A stretch of DNA of 64,000 nt from Tridacna crocea. Its lineage: Eukaryota; Mollusca; Bivalvia; Cardiida; Cardiidae. Shown in pieces: positions 485 through 62,834 of the stretch. The stretch spans positions 57,356,192 through 57,420,191 of the forward strand of contig OX031061.1 in the NCBI GenBank assembly GCA_943736015.1. Direction: 5' to 3'. The notes beneath the pieces are model-generated. The model was not told the DNA's origin, ran no database searches, and worked only from the letters and a program-made list of their open reading frames with translations. Position numbers and translations under genes: made by a program. Numbering within the stretch: position 1 is the stretch's first letter; each line of letters begins with the position of its first letter.

Positions 485-3400
485 GAAATTGTTAGATAAG
501 CCATGGTAGCTCTGGTGCCAGAGATAAATCCCTAGTAGCTTGTACAGGAGATATGCGGCTCTTGTGTAGGAGACAAAGCCATAGTGGCTCTTGTTTAGGA
601 AATAAAGCCATAGTGGCTCTTGTGTAGGAGATAAAGCCGTAGGAAATAAAGCCATAGTGGCTCTTGTGTACGAGATAAAGCCACAGTGGCTCTTGTGTAG
701 GAGCTAAGGCCATAGTTGCTCTTGTGTAGGAGATAAAGCCACAGTGGCTCTTGTTTGGAAAATAAAGCCATAGTGGCTCTGTTTGTGTACGAGATAAAGC
801 CACAGTGGCTTTTGTTTGGGAAATAAAGCCACAGTGGCTCTTGTGTAGGAGATAAAGCCAGTGGCTCTTGTTTGGGCAATAAAGCCACAGTGGTTCTTGT
901 GCAGGAACTGAAGCCATAGTGGCTCTTGTGTAGGAGCTAAAGCCATAGTGGCTCTTGTGTAGGAGATAAAGCCACAGTGGCTCTTGTTTGGGAAATAAAG
1001 CCACAGTGGCTCTTGTGTAGGAGATAAAGCCATAGCGGCTCTTGTGTAGGCTATTAGGCAAGAGTGGTTCTTGCGAGGAGAAAAAGTCATTATGGCTCAT
1101 GATTAGGAGATAAAGCCATAGTGGTTCTTGTTTAGGAAATAAAGCAACGGTAGCTTTTGTTTAGGAGATAAAGCCATTGTGGTTCTTGTTTAAGAGATAA
1201 AGCCGCAATGATTCTTGTGTAGGAGAAAAGCCAAAGTACCTCTTAATTAGGTGATAAAGCCATAGTAAACCTTGTTTAGGAAATAAAGCCTTAGTGGCTC
1301 TTGTTTAAGTTCTTGTTTAAGAGATACAGACGCAATTTGGAGGTAAAGAAATAATGGTTTTTATTTAGGAGATAGAGCAAAAGTGGCTCTTCTGTAGGAG
1401 ATAAAGTCATAATGGCTCTTGTTAAGGAGATAAAGCCATGGTAGCTCTTGTTTAGGAAATAAAGCCATAGTGGCTCTTTTGTAGGATATAAAACCAGGGT
1501 ATTTCTTGTTTAGGAGATAAAGCCATGGAAGCTCTTGTGTTGGAGATAAAAGCCATGGTACCTTTTATTTAGGACATAAACCCATGGAGGCTCTTGTTTA
1601 GGAGATAAAGCCTCGGAAGCTCCTGTTGTAGGAGATAATGCCATGATAGTACTTGTTAAACAGATAAAGCCATGGAGGCTCTTGTAGGAGATAAAGTCAC
1701 GGAAGCTCTTGTAGGAGATAAAGTGATGGTACCTTTTATTTAGGACATAAACCCATGGAGGCTCTTGTATAGGAGATAAAGCCTCAGAAGCTTCTTTTGT
1801 AGGATATTATGCCATGATAGCACTTGTTCAACAGATAAAGCCATGGAAGCTCTTGTAGGAGATAAAGCCATGAAAGCTCTTGTAGAAGATAAAGTCACGG
1901 AAGCTCTTGTTGTAGGAGATAAAGCCATGGTAACTCTTGTAGGAGATAAAGCCATGGTAACTCTTGTTTAGGAGATAAAGTCATGGTAACTCTTGTTTAG
2001 GAGATAAAGTCATGGTAACTCTTGTTCAGGAGATAAAGCCATGGAAGCTCTTGTAGGAGATAAAGCCATGGTACCTCTTGTTGGAGATAAAGTCATGGTA
2101 GTTCACGTTCATGAGATAAAGCCATGGTAGCTCATGTTCAAGAGGTAAAGCCATGGTACCTCTTGTTGGAGATAAAATCATGGTGGCTCACGTTCAGGAG
2201 ATAAAGCCATGGTAGCTCATGTTCAGGAGATAAAGCCGGGGTAGCTCTTGTTCAGGAGATAAAGCCATAACTCTTGTTTAGGAGATAAAGCCATGGAAGC
2301 TCTTGAAGGAGATAAAGCCATGGTAACTCTTGTTTAGGAGATAAAGCCATGGTAACTCTTGTTTAGGAGATAGTCATGGTAACTCTTGTTGTAGGAGATA
2401 AAGCCATGGTAACTCTTGTTCAGGAGATAAAGCCATGGTAACTCTTGTTGGAGATAAAGCCATGGTAACTCTTGTTTAGGAGATAGTCATGGTAACTCTT
2501 GTTGTAGGAGATAAAGCCATGGTAACTCTTGTTTAGGAGATAAAGTCATGGTAACTCTTGTTTAGGAGATAAAGCCATGGAAGCTCTTGTAGGAGATAAA
2601 GCCATGGTAACTCTTGTTTAGGAGATAAAGTCATGGTAACTCTTGTTGTAGGAGATAAAGTCATGGAAGCTCTTGTTGGAGATAAAGCCATGGTAACTCT
2701 TGTTTAGGAGATAAAGTCATGGTAACTCTTGTTTAGGAGATAGTCATGGTAACTCTTGTTGTAGGAGATAAAGCCATGGTAACTCTTGTTTAGGAGATAA
2801 AGTCATGGTAACTCTTGTTTAGGAGATAAAGCCATGGAAGCTCTTGTAGGAGATAAAGTCATGGTAACTCTTGTAGGAGATAAAGCCATGGTAACTCTTG
2901 TTTAGGAGATAAAGTCATGGTAACTCTTGCTGTAGGAGATAAAGCCATTGAAGCTCTTGTAGGAGATAAAGCCATGGTAACTCTTGTTGTAGGAGATAAA
3001 GTCATGGAAGCTCTTGTTGGAGATAAAGCCATGGTAACTCTTGTTTAGGAGATAAAGTCATGGAAGCTCTTGTTGGAGATAAAGCCATGGTAACTCTTGT
3101 TTAGGAGATAAAGTCATGGAAGCTCTTGTAGGAGATAAAGCTATGGAACCTCTTGTTGGAGATAAAGTCATGGTAGTTCACGTTCATGAGATAAAGCCAT
3201 GGTAGCTCATGTTCAAGAGGTAAAGCCATGGTACCTCTTGTTGGAGATAAAATCATGGTGGCTCACGTTCAGAAAATAAGGCCATGGTAGCTCATGTTCA
3301 GGAGATAAAGCCGGGGTAGCTCTTGTTCAGGAGATAAAGCCATAACTCTTGTTTAGGAGATAAAGCCATGGAAGCTCTTGAAGGAGATAAAGCCATGGTA

Positions 3401-4318
3401 ACTCTTGTTTAGGAGATAAAGCCATGGTACCTCTTGTTTAGGAGATAAAGCCATGGTAACTCTTGTTGTAGGAGATAAAGTCATGGTAACTCTTGTTTAG
3501 GAGATAGTCATGGTAACTCTTGTTTAGGAGATAAAGTCATGGTAACTCTTGTTTAGGAGATAAAGCCATGGAAGCTCTTGTAGGAGATAAAGCCATGGTA
3601 ACTCTTGTTTAGGAGATAAAGTCATGGTAACTCTTGTTGTAGGAGATAAAGTCATGGAAGCTCTTGTTGGAGATAAAGCCATGGTAACTCTTGTTTAGGA
3701 GATAAAGTCATGGTAACTCTTGTTTAGGAGATAGTCATGGTAACTCTTGTTGTAGGAGATAAAGCCATGGTAACTCTTGTTTAGGAGATAAAGCCATGGA
3801 AGCTCTTGTAGGAGATAAAGCCATGGTACCTCTTGTTGGAGATAAAGTCATGGTAGCTCACAATCATGAGATAAAGCCATGGTAGCTCTTGTTCAAGAGG
3901 TAAAGCCATGGTACCTCTTGTTGGAGATAAAATCATGGTGGCTCACGTTCAGGAGATAAAGCCGGGGTAGCTCTTGTAGGAGATAAACCCATGGTAGCTC
4001 TTGTTGTAGGAGAGAAAGCTGTGGTAGCTCTTGTTGTAGGAGGCAAAGCCATGTTAGCTCTTGTTCAGGAGAGCTCTTGTTGTACGAGATCAAGCCGTGG
4101 TAGCTCTTGTTCAGGAGATAAAGCCATGGTAGCTCTTGTAGGAGATAAAGTCATGGTAGCTCACATACATGAGATAAAGCCATGGTAGCTCATGTTCAAG
4201 AGGTAAAGCCATGGTACCTCTTGTAGGAGATAAAGTGATGGTAGCTCTTGTAAAGGAGATAGCCATGGAAGTTTTTGTGTGGGAGATAAAGCCATAGTAG
4301 CTCTTGTGCAGGAGGAAA
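485..4318. repeat. Minisatellite array TR1, 27-30 bp unit
   Basis: About 130 imperfect units of the type ggagataaagccatggtaac + tcttgttta. Up to about 1500 the variant is catagtggc; beyond that catggtaac, catggaagc or catggtacc. Unit lengths of 27, 29 and 30 bp alternate, with some shorter units. A block beginning gtcatggtagttcacg at 2092 recurs at 3167 (period about 1075 bp) and, less exactly, at 3848 and 4150, so there is higher-order structure. Open frames within it (minus-strand 492-1100, plus-strand 3991-4188) follow from the repeat. The 29 bp units bring TAG in frame and break the phase, so I do not call a gene. Confidence 0.9.
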
Positions 4319-4519
4319 TGAAACCAAAAAATGTTTACTGATAAAGAAGTGGCAGTTTGAGTGTGACATATAAAGATGTCAGTGATAAAACTGCAGCTGC
4401 TGTTTTACATGGGACACCACCACAGGAAGCTGGTGGCAGCTGTAGTGCAGGCAAGAAACCTACAGCAGCTTTAGAGCAGGAGACCAAAAAATTGCAGCAG
4501 CAGTATCTCTAGTGCAGCT
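4319..4519. repeat. Decayed tail of minisatellite TR1
   Basis: Diverged pieces of the same theme (gcagcttta, gtgcaggagac, ataaagctgcaacag) continue past the clean array and resume after the MITE at 4520-4742, up to about 4810. The MITE therefore lies within an older end of the array. Confidence 0.5.
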
Positions 4520-4742
4520 TTAACCCTTTACCAAATGACAAAATTTAAGATCTCCAAATTGAAAGCACTTGCATAAGACAAAATAAACGTAATACTAAAA
4601 TTGAAATTTGTTTCCAGCAGGGTAGAAAACATTGTAGGAAAAGGAGAAAATGCAACCAGCATTTTCTCCTTTTCCCACAATGTTTCTAAAAGCCTTCTAC
4701 CTCAGGGTCCTTAAAACTGCAGATTGTGTGGTAAAGGACTAA
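4520..4742 (-). mobile_element. hpA MITE, complete but aged
   Basis: TTAA at the left and a mutated CTAA at the right. The palindrome centre is shortened to tgcaaccagc. Confidence 0.8.
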
Positions 4743-34008: not shown

Positions 34009-34204
34009 TCCCTAGCTATCAGATTGTGGCAGACATTAATGTCAACTGTGGCATCTCCCATGTCAGCTTCCACTACACTGGACATATCTATAATTCCATC
34101 TGTGATATCTGAAACAATCTTTTATACCATTATCATGTTTGACATCTTAAAGGTATAAGCTCAAAACGTTTCCATGATATAATTCAATTCAACATCTTAC
34201 TGTG

Positions 34205-34433
34205 TTAACCCATTACCACACAATCCCTACTTTTGACGCCCCTGAGAAAGAATCCTTTTGAAAACACTGTGGGAAAAGGAGAAAATGCTGGTAACCAGCA
34301 TTTTCTCCTTTTCCCACAGTGTTTTCTACCCTTCCCAGAACAAATTTCAATTTTTCAATCAACTTTATTTTGTCATCTGCAAATGCTTTCAATTTGAACC
34401 AGTCTAAAATTTTGTTGTGTGGTAAAGAGTTAA
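34205..34433 (+). mobile_element. hpA MITE, reference copy
   Basis: 229 bp including TTAA on both sides. The inverted ends CCCATTACCACACAA and CTCTTTACCACACAA (right end, complement) differ at two bases. Between them: short arm (about 45 bp: acttttgacgcccctgag), palindrome 34258-34324 with a one-base centre, and long arm (about 100 bp: ttttgtcatctgcaaatgc, gaaccagtctaaaatttt). The stem contains the pair cactgtggg/cccacagtg on both sides. The TTAA duplication and CCC..GGG-type ends are typical of the piggyBac superfamily. The element is non-coding. Confidence 0.92.
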
Positions 34434-34584
34434 ACAAGTACATGTTTATGGTAAATAAGACAAAATACTTAGAGAACACGGATTTACATGAAGAGCATAA
34501 AGTATGCAGAAAAAGCAAACACTGATATAAAGAGGTAGAGATAACAGTAATATTAAACTAGAAGAACTAATACAGGTACGTGCT

Positions 34585-37654: not shown

Positions 37655-38825
37655 TGCAATAAGTCGGAGACCTTCAAGAGCCAAAGCAATCAGTCCCACA
37701 ATCTGTGAGGTATTCTTCCATAAGATTTTGTAGCAATCAGTCCCACAACCTGTGAGGCATTCTTTCATGAGAGCTTGTAGCAATCTGTCTGACAATCTGT
37801 GACATACTCTTCCATGAGATTTTGAAGCAATCAGTCCCACAACCTGTGAGGCACTCTTCCAAGAGATTTTGTAGCAATCAGTCCCACAATTTATGACATA
37901 CTCTTCCATGAGATTTTGTAGCAATTAGTTTCACAATCCGTGAGGTATTCCTTCATGAGATTTTGTAGCAATCAGTCCCACAATCTGTGAGGTACTCTTC
38001 AAAGAGATTTTGTAGCAATCAGTCCCACAATCCATGAAGCACTCTTCCATGAGATTTTGTAGCAATCAGTCCCACATTTGTGAGGTACTATTCCCAAGAG
38101 ATTTTGTAGCAATAAGTCTAACAATCTGTGAGTCATTCTTTCATGACAGTTTGTAACAATCGGTCCCACAATCTGTGAGGTACTCTAGGTACTCTTCCAA
38201 TACATATTGCAGCAATCAGTCCCACAATCCATGAGGCACTCTTCTATGAGATTTTGTGGCAATAAGTCCCACAATCTGTAAGGTACCCTTCCATGAGATT
38301 TTGTAGTAATCAGTTCCACAATCTGTGAGGCATACTTCCATGAGATTTTGTAGCAATCAGTCCAACAATCTGTGAGGCATTCTTTCATGAGATTCTGTAG
38401 CAATCAGTCCAACAATCAGTGAGGTATTCTTTCATGAGATTCTGTAGCAATCAGTCCAACAATCTTTGAGGTACACTTCCATGAGATTTTGTAGTAATCA
38501 GTCCAACAATCTGTGAGGTATTCTTTCATGAGACATTGCAACCAGTCCCACAATCTGTGAGGTATTCTTCCATGAGATTTTGTAGCAATCAGTCCCACAA
38601 TCTGTGAGGCATTATTCTATTACATATTGTAGGAATCAGTCCCACAGTCTGTGAGGTATTCATCATGAGATTTTGTACCAATTAGTCCCACAGTATGTGG
38701 GGCATTCTTCTTTTAGATATTTTAGCAAACAGTCCTATATTCTATGAGGCATCCTTCCATGAGATTTTTTATTAATAAGTCGCACAATCTGCAAGCCATT
38801 CTTCTATGAGATTTTCTACTGTGAA
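37655..38825. repeat. Minisatellite array TR2, 47 bp unit
   Basis: About 25 units of gagattttgtagcaatcagt + cccacaatctgtgagg + attcttccat, with several 44-48 bp variants. Because 47 is not a multiple of three, a minus-strand frame runs through all three phases, yet stays open for 60 to 96 codons in places (37634-37924, 38185-38403, 38416-38598). No start context, cysteine pattern or family supports a protein. Confidence 0.9.
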
Positions 38826-52924: not shown

Positions 52925-53204
52925 TGTTGTAGGCCATATAATTTTGGCACTAGCTGGAGTTGACCTTTCACACTATCACCAGCAAGCCTGTTTTTCGAGC
53001 ATTACACCAAATTTCTATCTGCAACATTTGTAACTTTCTCCTTTGAGAGGTCTGCTGGACTTACCAGAAATAATTTAACCAAGTCAGGGCATTAGAACAC
53101 AGGGAACAGTAATTTCAGAGCTCTACATTTTCAAAAATCTGCCCTTCATTCTTTTATTTTTCAACTGAAATCTTTGATATTGACCAGCAACACTGAAAAA
53201 GAAG

Positions 53205-53347
53205 TGTAGTGGCCTAAAATGTAACAGTTTAAGAAGCCATATCGGTTAGTGATTTGTGTAAGTGGTTGGTAGAGCACTCGCCCTGTAAGCGAGGGTTTCC
53301 GGGTTTGAGCTCTGGTCTTGCTGCATAAATTTTCTCACCTGGTTACA
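53205..53347 (+). repeat. Left LTR with damaged tRNA-like region
   Basis: ttggtagagcactcgccctg + taagcgagg and B box gggtttgagctc. The agctcag word of the A box is deleted relative to the right LTR. The anticodon stem ctcgc/gcgag is intact. Confidence 0.8.
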
Positions 53348-53497
53348 TTTGGCGCCCAATGTGGGATTGTTGTGATGATTGCTTGGTCAATTAATTAGTT
53401 CTCCCATGTATAACTGCTCTTGGGTTTGTCAAGAACATAGCAATTTGTTCTTTGTCCTGGGAATTTGGGGACGAATTCCAAATTGGCACAGGAGTAA

Positions 53498-53653
53498 TGT
53501 AATGGCCTATAATGTAATGGTTTAAGAACCTACATCAGTGAGTGATTTGTTTAAGCGGCCCAGTAGCTCAGTCGGTAGAGCACTCACCCTGTAAGCAAAG
53601 GATCCCAGGTTCGAGCTCCAGTCTGGCTGCATGAATTTTCTCACCTGATTACA
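53498..53653 (+). repeat. Right LTR with tRNA-like region
   Basis: The A box cagtagctcagtcgg, loop cctgtaa (UGU, threonine-like; position 33 is C), B box ggttcgagctc, and gcggcc/ggctgc as an acceptor-like stem are all present at about 53555-53630. Confidence 0.8.
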
Positions 53654-53872
53654 GAAGTTTCACTATAGGCACTGTAAAAACTTCAAATTCACTAAACTGA
53701 CGATGCAAGTTTTACATCTGAAACACGAAAACAGCAAGAGCTGTATGTGTCAAAGCTCAAGGAAAGCACTGATTTGCATCAGCTCATTATCAAAACTAAC
53801 CAATAGGAATTTAGTTCATTTGGATGTATACAATCAGAGGAAGTGAGGGTTTTCTAAATCCATTATTTCTCT

Positions 53873-53975
53873 TTAAACCCTTTGAAACCCTATGTTGTGG
53901 GTACTGATTAGAGTCGTTTCCATGAGACGATTCTAATTAGTACCCACAACATGGGGTTTCATGGACAATGGTTAA
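53873..53975. mobile_element. hpG: 103 bp TTAA hairpin
   Basis: TTAA both ends. gaaaccctatgttgtggg and tactgattagagtcgt are mirrored by acgattctaattagta and cccacaacatggggtttc around tttccatgag. Nearly pure hairpin, single copy here. Confidence 0.8.
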
Positions 53976-55236: not shown

Positions 55237-55826
55237 GAATGTAGGACGTTTTGGCCACGGACGTTTTGGCCAGGACGTTTTGGCCACGGACGTTTTGGCC
55301 ACATATAGTGAAAAAATGGACGTTTTGGCCAAAATAATTTTATATGTACTTTTTATGTAAAATAAAGCTAAAAAAAATTTTTTTTTTATTTGATCAATTG
55401 TTTAGACTTTTGTTGAACTTTTGTTGAAATTTGGTAATAAATTTTAGAGTTTTACAGTTTTATTTATTCCTTTGAAGTAAAGGAAAACATCAACAATTTA
55501 ATGTTTTTAAATTATCTTCAATTTTCAAGTTTTGTCTTTTGATTGACAAACAGTTTGATTGACTAATTGCTTATTAATGATACTTTCTTGCATTTAATGT
55601 TGTTATTATTAGAAGTGTAAAGAGTTTCATTGTTCTTGTCTTTTAACACTAATGAATCTGTAGATCACACCACACTTTAATCATCTATTTCAATTAAAGA
55701 AATATGTGATTAATTAATTTGTTTGAAAAACTGTTAAGAAAGATCAAAGTTGCTAGTATAGAATTAATATATTTGTTTGATATGTAAATTTTTCTGAAAA
55801 AGTTCTGGTACATATATAAAGACATT

Positions 55827-57335
55827 ATGAGGACTGTAGCTTTATTTCAAAATAATATTCAAGTGGCAACTTATATTAACAGTACAATGGAGATTATTAC
55901 TACTAAGCACGGTGGTCAGAAGTTATGTTTAGATGGATTTATGTATACGTGCAAACATGTTGCCAAACAGAAAAACGAGATAACTTGGCGTTGTGTAAAA
56001 AGAACTTCTTCTGGATGCAAGGCAATTTTACAAACTACAAAGGATTATGAAGATGCCACTTTACAGACAGTTCATAATCATATATCTGACAATGTTGGTG
56101 CCGAAATTGAAATCACTAGACACGGAATGAAATCAACAGCCAAAACTACAAATGACAAACCTAACCAGATTGTTACTTTCGCAACATCAACAGCATCAGA
56201 CCAAGTGAAAGCCAGATTACCAGAAGCTGACACCCTAAAAAGAGTCCTCCGAAGAGTCAGGGCAGCTCATAGACCAAAAGAACCACAAACTCTACAAGAA
56301 TTGAGTATTCAACATCCATGGACTCAAACTGTTGGTGATAATCAGACCAATTTTCTACTATTTGACAACGGGCCACATGCTGATGAACGAGTCATAGTGT
56401 TTGCTACAGAAGACCATGTCAGGAAACTAGCAGGCAGTGATAAATGGTGCATGGATGGTACATTTGCGGTGGCACCTCTCCTCTTTACGCAGCTGTATGT
56501 CATTCAAGGACTTGTGAATGGTGTTTTTCTCCCACTCGTGTATGCCCTCCTACAGCGCAGAACTCAGACAACATATGAAACTCTCTTTCGTGTTCTTGAA
56601 CAATTTGGATGTGATCCGTCAACTGTAATAATGGATTTTGAACGCAGTGTGGAAATGGCTATTTTTTCAGTGTTTGGTGAACATGTGAACATCCAGTTTT
56701 GCTTCTATCACTTGACCCAATCAATTTGGCGTAAGATACAATCCCTCGGACTTACCAACAGATATGAGAACGACAATGAGTTTAGATTATTTTGTGGACA
56801 GATCGACGCACTGGCTTTCCTTCCACTGGAAGAAGTCAATGATGGAATAGAATACTTAAAAGAAACTGTACCCGAGGAAGCTGAAGCTCTTCTTAATTAT
56901 TTTGATTCTACATATGTGTCTGGACAACTTCGCCCAAGAAGAAATAATGATGGCCTTATAGTCCGTTTTCGAAGAACACCCCCACTCTTCCCACCTAACA
57001 GATGGAACTGTCACCAAGCAACAATGTTAAATCAACCAAGAACAAACAACGCATCAGAAGGATGGAACAATAAGTTCCACAATTTAGTTGGCCAAGACCA
57101 CCCATCCGTCTGGAAACTCATTGAGACTCTTCAACGTGAATGTGCTCGTGTAAGTGCTGTTCTTTTACAAGATGAACGTGGTGTTCGACCAAAGAAGAGG
57201 GTTAAAAAAGTGTACATTGAACTTCAGACTCGACTAAGGAACTTGTGCGAAGACAGAATATCTGAGAGGAAATCGATAGTAGAGTTCTTGCGTGGTGTTT
57301 CCAGCAACCTGAGAGCAGGTCAACCAGACATTTAA
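55827..57335 (+). CDS. MULE transposase with FLYWCH zinc finger
   Basis: 502 codons, uninterrupted. The product should cut and move its own element by binding the TIRs in the nucleus. Residues 22-85 hold a FLYWCH-type finger: F38, Y40, W54, C56, C64 and H83/H85 in the usual spacing. The MULE catalytic core follows: D210 in WCMDGTF, D270 in VIMDFE, the C292/H295 pair in CFYH, and E411 in NNASEGWN, so the DDE triad and the C-x2-H motif are all present. A basic stretch (RPKKRVKK) near residue 455 may be nuclear targeting. The first ATG is used; M21 is an alternative. No intron is apparent. Whether it is expressed cannot be told from sequence. The intact frame suggests recent activity. Confidence 0.9.
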   Translation: MRTVALFQNNIQVATYINSTMEIITTKHGGQKLCLDGFMYTCKHVAKQKNEITWRCVKRTSSGCKAILQTTKDYEDATLQTVHNHISDNVGAEIEITRHGMKSTAKTTNDKPNQIVTFATSTASDQVKARLPEADTLKRVLRRVRAAHRPKEPQTLQELSIQHPWTQTVGDNQTNFLLFDNGPHADERVIVFATEDHVRKLAGSDKWCMDGTFAVAPLLFTQLYVIQGLVNGVFLPLVYALLQRRTQTTYETLFRVLEQFGCDPSTVIMDFERSVEMAIFSVFGEHVNIQFCFYHLTQSIWRKIQSLGLTNRYENDNEFRLFCGQIDALAFLPLEEVNDGIEYLKETVPEEAEALLNYFDSTYVSGQLRPRRNNDGLIVRFRRTPPLFPPNRWNCHQATMLNQPRTNNASEGWNNKFHNLVGQDHPSVWKLIETLQRECARVSAVLLQDERGVRPKKRVKKVYIELQTRLRNLCEDRISERKSIVEFLRGVSSNLRAGQPDI

Positions 57336-57400
57336 ATTTGAAGTGATGAAATTATAATTATGAAAGAAAGTGGTGTTATAATAGCCTATACAATTGATTT

Positions 57401-57795
57401 ATGAAATCATTGTAAGAAAAAAAGAAATTGCTCAGAATGAGGATTTCTCTTTTTCTTCCAATGTTTTCCATCATATAAGAAAACATCAATTTCCTTGATC
57501 AATACTTTTGATTATCCTCTTCAGAAGCTCCCAATATGGAAGGATTAACTGTATTATGAAATCATTGTAAGAAAAAAAGAAATTGCTCAGAATGAGGATT
57601 TCTCTTTTTCCTCCAATGTTTTCCATCATATAAGAAAACATCAAATTCCTTGATCAATACTTTTGATTGTCCTCTTCAGAAGCTCCCAATATGGAAGGAT
57701 TAACTGTATTATGAAATCATTGTAAGAAAAAAAGAAATTGCTCAGAATGAGGATTTCTCTTTTTCCTCCAATGTTTTCTATCATATAAGAAAAAG
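57401..57795. repeat. 155 bp direct repeats inside the MULE
   Basis: Two and a half copies starting at 57401, 57556 and 57711 (atgaaatcattgtaag). Each contains a decayed hairpin gaaattgctcagaatgaggatttctc that resembles the hpC core. Units differ by only a few bases, so the duplication is young. Confidence 0.85.
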
Positions 57796-58225
57796 AATTA
57801 AACACTTCATTTGAAATTAAACATCTTTATTTTAAAGCTTCAAATTGTGTCTGAGTTGTAAAATAAATTTAGGTTCGTGTTTTATTTCTTTTGTCTCATT
57901 TTATATTTTTATAATGTACTACCAAACCTTCTACACAATTGTCCATGGCCATCAGTATATAAGTACTTATTAAAGATTGAAAAGACACAGATACAAAGTC
58001 TTGAAACCATCTGTTATAATAAAAAATTGCAATAAAGGTCTATAATGTTGATCAAATAAGTAAATTAAATATGTTTGTAGCTTTAATATCTATAATAAGT
58101 ACATATATAATAGATTTGGCCAAAACGTCCGTTTTTTCAATATAGGTGGCCAAAACGTCCGTGGCCAAAACGTCCTGGCCAAAACGTCCTGGCCAAAACG
58201 TCCGTGGCCAAAACGTCCGTCCTCC

Positions 58226-58400: not shown

Positions 58401-58656
58401 ACGGATATGAACAAAATAAACTGATGTTTTATCCTAATACTCATTCGCTTGCTGTGACCAAACCTTTTGCTACAACCTTATTGAAAATGATCTACTGCAA
58501 AATAAACAACAGCATTACATTGTGGGAAACAATGCTTAGTTTCAGTTTCTTTTAGAAAAAGACTACTTTTCAGTGAAAAATTTAGGTCAAAAAGGGGCAT
58601 AAGTCTATCAAGAATAGTTTGATGGTTTCCTGCCCTATTTGTATGGGTCCCTCTTT
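58401..58656. repeat. famP copy 2 and unassigned DNA
   Basis: ttttcagtgaaaaatttagg..gtttgatggtttcctgcc (58565-58635) matches 45415-45530; the rest is unassigned. Confidence 0.45.
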
Positions 58657-58884
58657 TTAACTCATTACCACACGACAAAATTTTAGACTGTTTCAAATTG
58701 AAAGCATTTGCAGACGACAAAATAAAGGTGACTGAAAAATTGAAATTTGTTCTGGAAAGGGTAGAAAACACTGTGGGAAAAGGAGAAAATGCTGGTTACC
58801 AGCATTTTCTCCTTTTCCTACAGTGTTTTCAAAAAGGCTTCTTTCTCAGGGGCGTCAACAGGAGGGATTGTGTGGTAATGGGTT
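58657..58884 (-). mobile_element. hpA MITE, complete
   Basis: TTAA both ends; stem cactgtggg versus cctacagtg. Confidence 0.9.
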
Positions 58885-58970
58885 AACTCTATACCAGATG
58901 AGAAAATTTTAGGTTTGTCCAAATTGAAAGCATTTGCAGATGACAATTTCAATTTGGCTAAAATCAAGGT
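58881..58970 (-). mobile_element. hpA long arm, tandem
   Basis: Shares TTAA 58881-58884; gatgagaaaattttaggtttg..gcagatgacaatttc, then unrelated sequence. Confidence 0.65.
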
Positions 58971-59253
58971 CCAAAAACTTCCAGAAAAGGCACTCGTTCT
59001 TCAGGACAAGTGACTTTGAAAAAACACTTGCCCTACTTTGATCCTCACTTGTCCAGCGACAAAAACCTCCCAGAATCTGTCAGTTTGTTTTTCAGATGAA
59101 ATGGAAACCTTACAATGAACCTTAAAACCAGGTTTTAAAAACCGGTACCAGTTATCCAGTCCATTGACAGAAATGAATAAAGCCAAAATAATATGGTTTT
59201 TCAAACTGGTTTCGAGAGAGTTTTTGCGTTAATGTTAATATTGTCCAATTTGC
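58971..59253. other. Unassigned DNA at the 5' break of the retroelement
   Basis: Holds caggacaagtgactttg..cacttgtccagcg and an inverted pair aaaccaggtttt/aaaaaccgg. No RT or RNase H coding sequence, so the retroelement is broken just downstream. Confidence 0.45.
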
Positions 59254-61491
59254 AATGCCGATGCTGATGGCTTGAGTCGGTACCCCTATGAAACCGTTGT
59301 TGATCATGATAATCAGGAAAGAATAAGTCTACAGGACAAGACCGTCAAAGCCATTTGCAACCACCTCAATCCTACCCTGATTGAAATTCTCCCTGCATGC
59401 GATATGAACTTGGCAGACATTATTGATGAACCTGGATCTACCTTATCGCAGAAAGAATTTTGTGAGATACGACAAGCCCAGCGAAGAGACAAGTTGATTG
59501 ACAAGTGGAGGATAGCGGTCATTGATAAAAAGCTTCCATCTCGCTTCACCTGCAAAGACGACTTAACTATGCGGAAGCAATACAAAAACTTAAGAATAAA
59601 GAGAGGAATTCTATTTCGATGCATTCAAGAAGAAGACCAAATTATCGAACAACTAGTTGTGCCAAAGACATACAGGACAGAAATTCTCAAGGCAATACAA
59701 AATGACATAGGCCATCCTGGAAAGGAAAGAACACTTCGCCTTATCCGAGAATGGTTCTACTGGCCAGGCGTTGGATCAGATACATGCGAATGGGTGGAAA
59801 AATGTGATAGATGTATCCGGCGTCAGAGTACCATCGAAAAGGAACCTTTGGTCAATGTACATAGCACTTACCCTCTGGAACTGGTCTGCTTAGATTATTT
59901 GACTTTGGAACCTTCAAAAGGAAATATTGGCAACATTTTGGTTATAACAGACCACTACACCAAATTTCCAAAAGCGATTCCAACAAAAAACCAGACTGCG
60001 AAAACAACTGCAGAAACCTTATTCAACGAATTTTTTGTTCATTTTGGTATACCAGCCTGAATTCATTCTGACCAAGGAGCCAATTTTGAGAGCCAATTGA
60101 TACAAGAACTCTGCACTGTGATGGGAATAAAGAAAAGCCACACATCACCTTACCATCCTCAAGGTAATGCTGGTCCCGAAAGGTTCAACCGCACCCTCCT
60201 GAACATGCTTGGAACACTTGAAGACCATAAGAAAGGAGACTGGAAGCAGTTTGTAAAGCCACTAGTGTATTATTACAACTGCATTCCACACGAAACTACA
60301 AGAATGTCTCCTTACGAGCTTCTCTTTGGAAGAAAGCCCAGATTACCTGTTGATCTAGTGTTCGAAAAAGCCAGAGAGGGCTGCGAAAGTGAATCATTAC
60401 AAGACTACTTAGCTGAGCTTCAACTTAGAATGGCTAAAGCCCATGAGATAGTCTCAAGACATACTGACAGAGCAAAGACAAAAAACAAAGTCCTATATGA
60501 TAGAAGAGCGAAAGCTGTTAAATTGCAAGTTGGTGATAAAGTCCTGGTTAAGCAACTTGCATATAAAGGGAAACACAAGATAGCCGACAGATTTGAACCT
60601 GACACCTATATTGTCATGGACCAGGCAAGAACGGACATTCCTGTTTATAAGGTAAAATCTGAACAATCAGACAAAGAGAGACTGCTTCATAGGAACCACT
60701 TACTCTTGATTGAAAGTCAAGATGTACAGGTTGAAGAGTCTACTGAAGAGGATATTGTATCAGAAGAGGAGGATACAAAATCAAAACCCAGGGATGCATC
60801 CAAAGACAAAGAGATCACGGTCATTGATGACCATAGTGACATTGAACTCTTAAATGAGCTTGACTCTGAAGATGATGATGATTATGCTTATCATGCATAC
60901 GTCTATGGGGACGCCCATAATGTGCAAGATCAGAGTCGGGATAATGAAAATGATGCAGCAGAAGATCTACATGATGAATCTGCTGATCATACCTTTAGAA
61001 ACAGTAATGTTCCAGATACTACAGAAGATTTAGCCAGTAGTCATAGTACTGATGAGGTTAGGCATATTAATGAATCTTCTCTATCTTTTCAGGTTCCGAA
61101 GGAGAAAGATCAAGCCAACCTGGAAGAACAGTCGGCACACATAGAAGCTGAGAATGGCTCTGACATGACAGAACAGTCCTTGGAACAGTCAATGCAAACA
61201 CAAGCCGACCACTGTTTTGACATGAGGACCAGACAGCCCTCAGAAGTCGATAACAGTTCTACCACTGGAATTGAAGGGTCACAAGAGCTTGTCCAGCCTG
61301 TCCCTGCACCAAGACGGTCACAGAGACGAAAGAAACCACCAGACCGTTATGAAGACTTTATCCTGTATCAGATGTCTTCCAGGCAGCCGGATAGCCAGAT
61401 CCAAGCCCTTGATGCTCTCTTCCGGTCAGGTGTTCTGAATGATGTTGATTCCGTTACAGCTCGGAAGTTAGTGAATGCGGTAATGAAGTAA
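59254..61491 (+). pseudogene. Ty3/gypsy pol fragment: integrase and acidic tail
   Basis: The frame begins NADADGLSR, the usual C-terminal end of Ty3/gypsy RNase H, so gag, protease, RT and most of RNase H are missing. Integrase follows: a zinc-binding region (GHPGKERTL..FYWPG..CDRC) in which the first histidine position is Asn; the core with D in VCLDYL, D in HSDQGA and E in GPERFNRT; then ELLFGRKPRLP and a C-terminal module (DKVLVKQ). A TGA at 60058-60060 interrupts the frame between the first and second catalytic Asp; the frame is the same on both sides. After about 60720 comes a long acidic tail rich in E and D (EEDIVSEEEDTKS, DSEDDDDYAYHAY), then PAPRRSQRRKKPPDRY. Non-functional as it stands. 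Confidence 0.88.
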
Positions 61492-61615
61492 ACAGTAAAA
61501 GAACATTCCTTGATTTTTAACTTGTATGATATTGTTTTGTTTTACATGTAATAAAATACTGTTTACTCATGTAATTTGTTTATTATCACTTTGACTGAAG
61601 AGTCAAACACCCTTT

Positions 61616-61630
61616 AAAGGAGGGAGGGGA
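61616..61630 (+). promoter_or_regulatory. Polypurine tract
   Basis: aaaggagggagggga directly before TGTAATG, as expected for priming the plus strand of a Ty3/gypsy element. Confidence 0.8.
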
Positions 61631-62278
61631 TGTAATGATGTAATCTAATTTGTACATGTACACAAGATTAAGCCGTATGTAGTGTTAGTTGTATGTAGTA
61701 CAGCTAGTTCAATTGTTTTTTGTAAGTTCCCGACTGACTTGCATTACAGTAGTTTTGTAGTTAGTTAAGTTAGTAACTTGACAGACAATGACGGGACGTC
61801 ATTTTTCCACAGAGGGGGAGTATGTGACCAGGTGATAGGTTTTTCCTTTATGTGTGTACAGTACTGGTTGTACTTTGATTCCATGTTCTTCATTCCTTTT
61901 GGTTATTTTAATGTCCGTTTCATTCATTTCCGTTCATTGAAAGCATTGCATCTTTTAAGTCAGGTGATTGAGTTGAGCGGCAGATTTCATTGTGTTTAGA
62001 CGGCCATCTTGGCCGTATTAGAAAATTTACTTTTTCTATCAAGTTTAACTGGTTTTTGTAAGCTTATTTGGCTTTCAGTATAGGTTGCTTTAAGCCAGCT
62101 TGTTATCTCTACGCGTGTGCATTGAGAAATTATCGTATTATTATGAGTTTTCGTGTTCACTGACTTTGCGCGTTTATTACGGCAGCATTGGCTAATTTAG
62201 GCAACGACTGTGTTTTAACATTGCATGTTTTATTCATAATATTATTCTTGCATGTTCTTCTTATTACAGCTACTAACA
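61631..62278 (+). mobile_element. Putative 3' LTR of the Ty3/gypsy element
   Basis: Starts TGTAATGATG after the polypurine tract. The end is set at TTACA (62274-62278), which mirrors the TGTAA start, giving 648 bp. With no 5' LTR in the window this end is an estimate, and the LTR could run further, to about 62790. Confidence 0.6.
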
Positions 62279-62834
62279 GCACAGTGTGGAGCTGGTGTGG
62301 GAGTAGACAACCCCATTTGTACTCTGTGAAACCCACTTGTACTCAGTTCTGTGAATTGGTAAGTGACTGTGTAATGTGCTGTAATTCAATGTTTGTTGTA
62401 TGTCTTGTTCTATGGAGTCTTTAGTGTCTTTTAGTATTAACTATGTACATAAGTGAAAGAATGTTTCTGTCAACCCATTTCTTTATGCTTTGGATAAGGC
62501 ATAAAGTCCTAGGTTGTTGGTACTTGGGTAGATTGGTCAAGTTTGGTTAAAACCTGTTTTTATGATATCTACTTTGCAGGAAGTATCAAGTTATTTCTGT
62601 GAACAAGTATTTAGTATTGTTTTTATTGTATATTTCAGATACATGGTTTCATTGTTTAATGGTTTCATGGTTTCACGTATGATGTACTATGTATGCTACT
62701 GTCTACTTGATTAAGAAACAGTTTTAAGAAACCAGTGATTTTGTGTTTGACTTGAATCTTTAAAATAACCAACCGGTTATATATACAAGGGGATGAGTGG
62801 ATTTTTTGGACCCTGAAATAGTGCAACAGTTTAT
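62279..62834. other. Unassigned DNA downstream of the LTR
   Basis: Includes a short direct repeat, atggtttcattgtttaatgg, near 62643-62670. The 78-codon frame at 62188-62424 crosses the supposed LTR end and has hydrophobic and Cys-rich parts but no known domain. Confidence 0.35.

What the first reader, a model, noticed from the sequence alone, without database searches (positions are those of the whole stretch)
53201..53657. A 449 bp LTR element whose LTRs carry a tRNA-like Pol III promoter
Seen: two LTR-like direct repeats with TG..CA ends, identical GAAG on both sides, a primer site TGGCGCCCAATGTGGG directly after the left repeat, and no coding interior. Each repeat contains a tRNA-like segment with B box, and the right one also has an A box. 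Known: TRIMs are tiny LTR retrotransposons that move in trans; the plant Cassandra TRIMs carry a 5S rRNA-derived Pol III promoter in the LTR. Inferred: this is an animal counterpart with a tRNA-derived promoter, a cross between SINE and TRIM. The TGTAATG..TTACA termini match those of the Ty3/gypsy LTR at 61631, a possible helper type.
Basis: partly seen in the sequence, partly recalled or inferred. Interest (0 to 1): 0.86.

Follow-up and report, generated by a model that had tools for sequence, protein, structure and literature searches.

The report
Tiny LTR element with tRNA-like promoter
This is one old copy of a tiny animal retrotransposon whose terminal repeats each contain a tRNA-like stretch that probably served as its promoter; it is a real element, but the kind was described in 2024 under the name Helenus.

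Summary
Window 53205-53653 is a 449-bp non-coding LTR element: LTRs of 143 and 156 nt, a 150-nt interior, GAAG on both sides, and a tRNA-Lys(CTT)-type primer site two bases after the left LTR. Its own 1.05-Gb genome holds a family (51 matching segments, a lower bound). Of 21 copies read (the window's and the 20 next-best), 10 have exact 4-bp target-site duplications, against 4 of 420 swapped controls. All 21 have a primer-site match and purine tract. Two solo LTRs with exact duplications and a tandem array occur. At 13 of 20 other loci the tRNA-like part passes Rfam's tRNA cut-off, which the decayed window copy does not. A copy of that gypsy carries the same kind of primer site and a similar purine tract, so a gypsy helper is plausible. 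The class is already published as Helenus (Kojima 2024, PMC10886601). Verdict: real, a new member of a known kind, low novelty. Pol III transcription is inferred, and my two sequence tests for it were negative.

The parts
53201..53204 (.). left target-site duplication GAAG
   Evidence: exact 4-bp duplication in 10 of 21 copies vs 4 of 420 swapped pairs
53205..53347 (+). left LTR, 143 nt, TG..CA, lacking 13 nt across the A-box region
53302..53312 (+). B-box-like stretch in the left LTR (GGTTTGAGCTC)
   Evidence: motif name from own knowledge
53330..53333 (+). TTTT, possible Pol III terminator, left LTR
   Evidence: at 18 nt from the LTR end in 18 of 21 left LTRs
53350..53365 (+). primer-binding site, tRNA-Lys(CTT) type, 15 of 16
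   Evidence: 12-18 of 18 letters in the 21 copies read
53348..53497 (+). non-coding interior, 150 nt
53483..53497 (+). decayed purine tract before the right LTR (other copies mostly CAGGGGAGTA-like)
53498..53653 (+). right LTR, 156 nt, TGTAAT..ATTACA
53558..53632 (+). tRNA-like segment in the right LTR (decayed; Rfam tRNA 18.9 bits at 53561-53629, below the 29-bit cut-off)
   Evidence: other copies up to 49.9 bits
53564..53575 (+). A-box-like TAGCTCAGTCGG
   Evidence: motif name from own knowledge
53608..53618 (+). B-box-like GGTTCGAGCTC
   Evidence: motif name from own knowledge
53636..53639 (+). TTTT, possible Pol III terminator, right LTR
   Evidence: at 18 nt from the LTR end in 16 of 21 right LTRs
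53654..53657 (.). right target-site duplication GAAG
61823..62781 (+). 3' LTR of a 5'-truncated Ty3/gypsy element (candidate helper kind, not part of the TRIM); end approximate

Best explanation
It is an old, decayed copy of a Helenus-type TRIM: a non-coding LTR retrotransposon of about 450 bp with a tRNA-derived segment in each LTR. SHOWN by sequence: paired LTRs, 4-bp target-site duplications, Lys(CTT)-type primer site, purine tract, solo LTRs, a tandem array and many copies. INFERRED: in source copies, Pol III used the A and B boxes in the left LTR, read through the weak TTTT there, and stopped at the same TTTT in the right LTR. That gives a terminally redundant RNA whose repeated part runs from just upstream of the A box to the TTTT, leaving the last 14 nt of the LTR as U5. 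Reverse transcription would be primed by tRNA-Lys(CTT), and integration done in trans by proteins of a Ty3/gypsy element with the same kind of primer site, similar purine tract and LTR ends, and 4-bp duplications. The window copy itself looks dead: its left A box is lost and its LTRs are about 17% apart.
For: LTR pair and GAAG. Family of 51 matching segments in the own genome, the window's included (lower bound). Exact 4-bp duplications in 10 of 21 copies against 4 of 420 swapped pairs. Primer-site match after the left LTR in 21 of 21, at 12-18 of 18 letters, 16 of 21 with at least 15. Solo LTRs with exact duplications at L041 and L042. Tandem LTR-interior-LTR-interior array at L029. tRNA-like segment above the Rfam cut-off in 14 of 40 LTRs, at 13 of 20 loci; ARAGORN calls a tRNA at 9 of 20 loci, 7 of them Thr(TGT). 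TTTT at 18 nt from the LTR end in 18 of 21 left and 16 of 21 right LTRs. A gypsy copy has TGGCGCCCAACGT after its 5' LTR, a CAGAGGGGGAGTA purine tract and, by my reading, TACA on both sides. Kojima 2024 describes the same class, with 4-bp duplications and gypsy-like primer sites in animals.
Against: No RNA data. The boxes are not more conserved than the rest of the LTR: mean column agreement is 0.86 for the right A and B boxes and 0.85 for the left B box, against 0.89-0.90 for the 5' part and 0.91 for the interior; CpG decay may explain this but was not tested. The TTTT is 0.96 against 0.97 for the tail after it in the right LTR, and 0.97 against 0.93 in the left. T-runs are not depleted in the element as a whole (2 observed, shuffle mean 3.3; 2 against 2.1). 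The window copy's tRNA-like part scores only 18.9 bits, and the two tRNA-like parts fold no better than shuffles. A TTTT in the left LTR would have to be read through. 11 of 21 copies lack an exact 4-bp duplication (4 match 3 of 4, 7 match 0-2), although the 20 copies were the best-scoring and so biased to complete ones. The two gypsy insertions examined have LTRs without a mismatch over 910 bp or more, while the TRIM LTR pairs are about 10-22% apart (30% in the disrupted L026 and L027), so that gypsy family is not shown to have moved these copies.
Confidence: 0.85

Rival explanations
1. A TRIM transcribed by Pol II from its LTR. The tRNA-like segment is a SINE-derived passenger that no longer promotes transcription.
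For: Promoter boxes are not more conserved than other LTR parts, and there is no T-run depletion. No RNA data.
Against: tRNA-like segments above the Rfam cut-off (up to 49.9 bits) persist in 14 of 40 LTRs of diverged copies, and the TTTT sits 28 nt after the B-box start in both window LTRs (coordinates). Total size is within the Pol III range noted by Kojima.
Confidence: 0.25
2. Two independent tRNA-derived SINE copies lying close together, with chance GAAG flanks.
For: The tRNA-like unit resembles SINE heads; the window alone shows one pair.
Against: The same LTR-interior-LTR order with 4-bp duplications recurs. 41 of 44 listed LTR matches span at least 145 of 156 query letters (best-first scoring favours long matches). 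Solo LTRs with duplications occur.
Confidence: 0.01
3. The tRNA-like segment serves packaging or priming (a tRNA mimic bound by the helper) rather than transcription.
For: The tRNA-like part of the right LTR is closest to recalled tRNA-Lys among seven yardsticks, and the primer site is also Lys type.
Against: By eye the 3' end of the tRNA-like part shows no convincing match to the primer (not computed), and Kojima reports no complementarity between LTR tRNA-like parts and primer sites.
Confidence: 0.05

Closest known systems
Helenus (Kojima 2024, PMC10886601), animal and especially bivalve families
   Same: TRIM size (311-1263 bp), tRNA-like sequence in both LTRs, primer site plus purine tract, 4-bp duplications in animals, gypsy-type primer sites including tRNA-Lys, solo LTRs and tandem arrays reported for some families, tRNA-Thr-like calls in seven bivalve families.
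   Different: No family sequence could be compared, since the supplement and Repbase were not available here. Host unnamed, so it may be a listed or a new host. The fixed TTTT seems not to be discussed in the main text (no word beginning TTTT; Introduction seen only in passages).
Cassandra (plants)
   Same: TRIM with a small-RNA-gene Pol III promoter in the LTRs; transcript starts in the left and ends in the right LTR (passages).
   Different: 5S rRNA-derived, in plants, different primer site.
Ajax (nemerteans)
   Same: Animal TRIM with Pol III-type promoter.
   Different: 5S-derived, 5-bp duplications, tRNA-Leu primer.
biv-TRIM (PMC6934838)
   Same: Animal TRIM, found in bivalves, with solo and tandem forms.
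   Different: Repeats 202-218 bp, interior 77-80 bp, no canonical primer site identified.
tRNA-derived SINEs
   Same: tRNA-like head with A and B boxes.
   Different: This element has LTRs, primer site, purine tract and 4-bp duplications.

Membership tests
Helenus TRIM | short LTR element (311-1263 bp in the paper) with no coding capacity | tested here: met
   449 bp; no stop-to-stop frame of 120 aa or more overlaps it
[quoted passage not shown]
   Rfam tRNA above cut-off in 14 of 40 LTRs, at 13 of 20 loci; window copy below it at 18.9 bits
Helenus TRIM | primer-binding site just inside the left LTR | tested here: met
   21 of 21 copies, 12-18 of 18 letters to Lys(CTT) (yardstick tRNA recalled)
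Helenus TRIM | purine tract before the right LTR | tested here: met
   6-8 purines in the last 10 nt in the 21 copies, mostly CAGGGGAGTA-like; decayed in the window copy
Helenus TRIM | 4-bp target-site duplication (animals) | tested here: met
   exact in 10 of 21 vs 4 of 420 swapped; also solo LTRs L041, L042
Helenus TRIM | sequence membership in a named Helenus family | not testable with these tools
   Repbase and the paper's supplement not available
TRIMp3 (Pol III-driven TRIM) | transcription by Pol III | not testable with these tools
   no RNA or ChIP data
tRNA SINE | single tRNA-like unit without LTR structure or fixed-length duplications | tested here: not met
biv-TRIM | repeats 202-218 bp, interior 77-80 bp | tested here: not met
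   143/156 and 150 nt
Cassandra | 5S rRNA-derived LTR segment | tested here: not met
   tRNA and no 5S match in Rfam scans

The most novel reading that the evidence does not exclude
The LTR is organised as a Pol III unit in retroviral layout: Pol III start and TTTT bound the R region, U5 is only about 14 nt, and the left TTTT must be leaky. The ratio of stopped to read-through transcripts would then set how much short tRNA-like RNA versus mobile RNA is made.
Probability: 0.3. Interest if true: 0.5.

Novelty: new member of a known kind. Interest (0 to 1): 0.25.

Why it matters
It adds an example, with duplications, solo LTRs and a candidate helper in the same genome, to a class whose 2024 description says that functional Pol III promoters are not yet validated experimentally. 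A TTTT at a fixed place in most LTRs gives a simple testable prediction of where the RNA begins and ends. It also shows again that tRNA predictors count such LTRs as tRNA genes (9 of 20 loci here).

Tried and rejected
Two tandem SINEs: rejected by family copies with 4-bp duplications. Helper LTR at 61631: rejected, since other copies place the LTR start at 61823. T-run depletion as evidence for Pol III: tested, not significant for the element; only the window interior alone gave P 0.048. Conservation of the boxes over the rest of the LTR: tested, not seen. Self-priming by the LTR's tRNA-like end: no convincing match by eye, not computed. Folding the tRNA-like parts: no better than shuffles. 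Pattern scans of viral contigs and genome contigs for the LTR end plus primer site and for the LTR tail, and of viral contigs for the tRNA core: 0 hits. Integrase scan of viral contigs: 17 pattern matches, none a relative. Protein searches to name the host: named relatives in crustaceans, bivalves, gastropods and a few other animals, no host name. The separate interior search and a search with the short-interior variant L043 did not complete (interior; L043), nor was a pattern search of the own genome.

Full report
Anatomy. The element runs 53205-53653 (449 bp): LTR-L 143 nt, interior 150 nt, LTR-R 156 nt, flanked by GAAG. The LTRs share 119 of 143 ungapped columns (K2P 0.196) plus one 13-nt gap that removes the A-box part of LTR-L; the local score is 137 against a maximum of 28 in 500 shuffles. 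Similarity stops at the TG and CA ends by eye. A primer site of tRNA-Lys(CTT) type starts at 53350; within 3 mismatches it is the only one in the window, and shuffles average 0.08. The right LTR holds A-box-like (53564) and B-box-like (53608) stretches and TTTT (53636); the left keeps B (53302) and TTTT (53330). These two are the only runs of four or more T on the + strand of the element. The names of the boxes are recalled knowledge. The tRNA-like part scores 18.9 bits against Rfam tRNA, below the cut-off of 29; ARAGORN finds nothing in the window. Against seven recalled human tRNAs the right LTR is closest to the two Lys ones (58 each) and next to Thr (44); the left, which lacks the A box, is closest to Thr (36) and Lys-TTT (33).

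Family in the own genome. After many unanswered requests, one search found 51 matching segments, the window's own included (99 candidates, 40 scored, so a lower bound), in a 1.05-Gb genome of 31 contigs. I fetched the 20 best-scoring matches other than the window's and read them with the window copy, 21 in all; this choice favours complete copies. Exact 4-bp duplications occur in 10 of 21, and 4 of 420 swapped flank pairs match by chance. Of the other 11, four match 3 of 4 and seven match 0-2; they include broken ends, a tandem array and a copy (L017) that shares its 3' flank with L021 on the same contig, probably a duplicated segment. A primer-site match follows the left LTR in all 21, with 12-18 of 18 letters and 16 of 21 at 15 or more. 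The purine tract is mostly CAGGGGAGTA-like. LTR pairs differ by K2P 0.10-0.26 (0.38-0.39 in L026 and L027, whose right LTR is disrupted), so all examined copies are old. Ten further, less complete matches were fetched: L029 shows LTR-interior-LTR-interior followed by a partial LTR, and the other nine carry the interior with one or two LTRs, in whole or part; these ten fetches are not in the counts above (L029 is a wider view of L019, which is).

Solo LTRs and a variant. An LTR-only search gave 44 matches, 41 of them over at least 145 of 156 query letters (116 candidates, 40 scored). Nine places without a counterpart were fetched and read. L041 and L042 are solo LTRs with exact 4-bp duplications. 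L039 and L046 match 3 of 4, L047 has none, and L045 lacks the start of the LTR. L044 keeps only the interior end and right LTR. L040 is an element with internal deletion and ATTG on both sides. L043 has LTRs of 148 and 150 nt around a different 62-nt interior with the same kind of primer site and TGTA on both sides.

tRNA-like part. At Rfam's own cut-off, 14 of 40 LTRs, at 13 of 20 fetched loci, are tRNA matches (best 49.9 bits). ARAGORN reports a tRNA at 9 of 20 loci: 7 Thr(TGT), 1 Arg(TCT), 1 Ile(TAT). The window copy is thus a decayed example. Kojima reports that seven bivalve Helenus families can encode tRNA-Thr.

Test of the Pol III reading. TTTT lies 18 nt before the LTR end in 18 of 21 left and 16 of 21 right LTRs, and 16 of 21 interiors have no T4 run. 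This fits a Pol III unit, but the statistics do not demand it: the element has 2 T4 runs against a shuffle mean of 3.3, and a column-majority count over 18 copies (L025-L027 left out) gives 2 against 2.1. Over the same 18, the TTTT is about as conserved as the tail after it (0.96 and 0.97 against 0.97 and 0.93), and the boxes (0.85-0.86) are slightly less conserved than the 5' part of the LTR (0.89-0.90). Pol III transcription therefore rests on analogy with Cassandra and on the persistence of tRNA-like segments. It is inferred.

Helper. In the genome, several copies of that stretch, among them the 5' LTRs on C14 and C1, match only from query position 190-193 onward, so the LTR starts at 61823 (TGTGACC) and runs to about 62781. 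In the copy on contig C14, the 5' and 3' LTRs matched without a mismatch over the 914 bp compared and again over an overlapping stretch of 169 bp that reaches the LTR end. By my reading it has TACA on both sides (the right one at the start of an AC repeat), purine tract CAGAGGGGGAGTA, LTR end GGTTATA, and TGGCGCCCAACGT (13 letters of the Lys(CTT) site) three bases on. TRIM copies typically have CAGGGGAGTA, LTR start TGTAAC, LTR end GGTTACA, and a TGGCGCCCAACGTGGG-like site two bases on. A gypsy of this kind is a fair helper candidate; other gypsy families were not surveyed. A second pair on C1 matched without a mismatch over 910 bp, so this gypsy moved recently while the TRIM copies are old.

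Comparison with the literature. Kojima 2024 (PMC10886601; abstract, Methods, Results, Discussion, legends and tables, and passages read; Introduction only in passages, supplement not read) defines Helenus as TRIMs with tRNA-like LTR segments, with 4-bp duplications and gypsy-type primer sites in animals; bivalve families use Lys among other primers. The structural features tested here agree. The listings showed no other paper whose title or abstract start describes this class; three papers were opened. biv-TRIM (PMC6934838; outline, abstract and passages) is different. For Cassandra I saw passages of PMC7215508.

Verdict.

Noticed in passing
window, e.g. 4518-4737, 34204-34434, 58656-58887: A short repeat of about 225 bp, with TTTAACCCTTT-like ends in inverted orientation and an inner palindrome, is scattered through the window (51 candidate end pairs at up to 2 mismatches, some overlapping, no shuffled control). 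It looks like a TTAA-targeting MITE; that label is recalled, not tested.
   Followed up: partly
window 55788-57335 +: Open 515-aa frame with FLYWCH and MULE transposase domains; a database protein is 99% identical with 47 member sequences, so probably a recently active MULE-type transposon.
   Followed up: partly
window 59239-62781 +: 5'-truncated Ty3/gypsy element: integrase domains, one in-frame stop inside the integrase, single 3' LTR from 61823.
   Followed up: yes
window 640-4314; 37685-38815; 57399-57839: Tandem arrays of 29-bp, 47-bp and 155-bp units.
   Followed up: no
window 53883-53961: Fold-back with 38-nt arms, 89% complementary, 3-nt loop, 230 bp downstream of the TRIM.
   Followed up: no
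L043 (reverse strand of 401-760): Related TRIM with the same LTR type but a different 62-nt interior, same kind of primer site, TGTA on both sides: interiors may be exchangeable under one LTR type. One copy only; its own search did not complete.
   Followed up: partly
L017 and L021: Two TRIM copies on contig C7, about 1.4 Mb apart, share the same 8 bases of 3' flank but not the 5' flank: probable segmental duplication.
   Followed up: no
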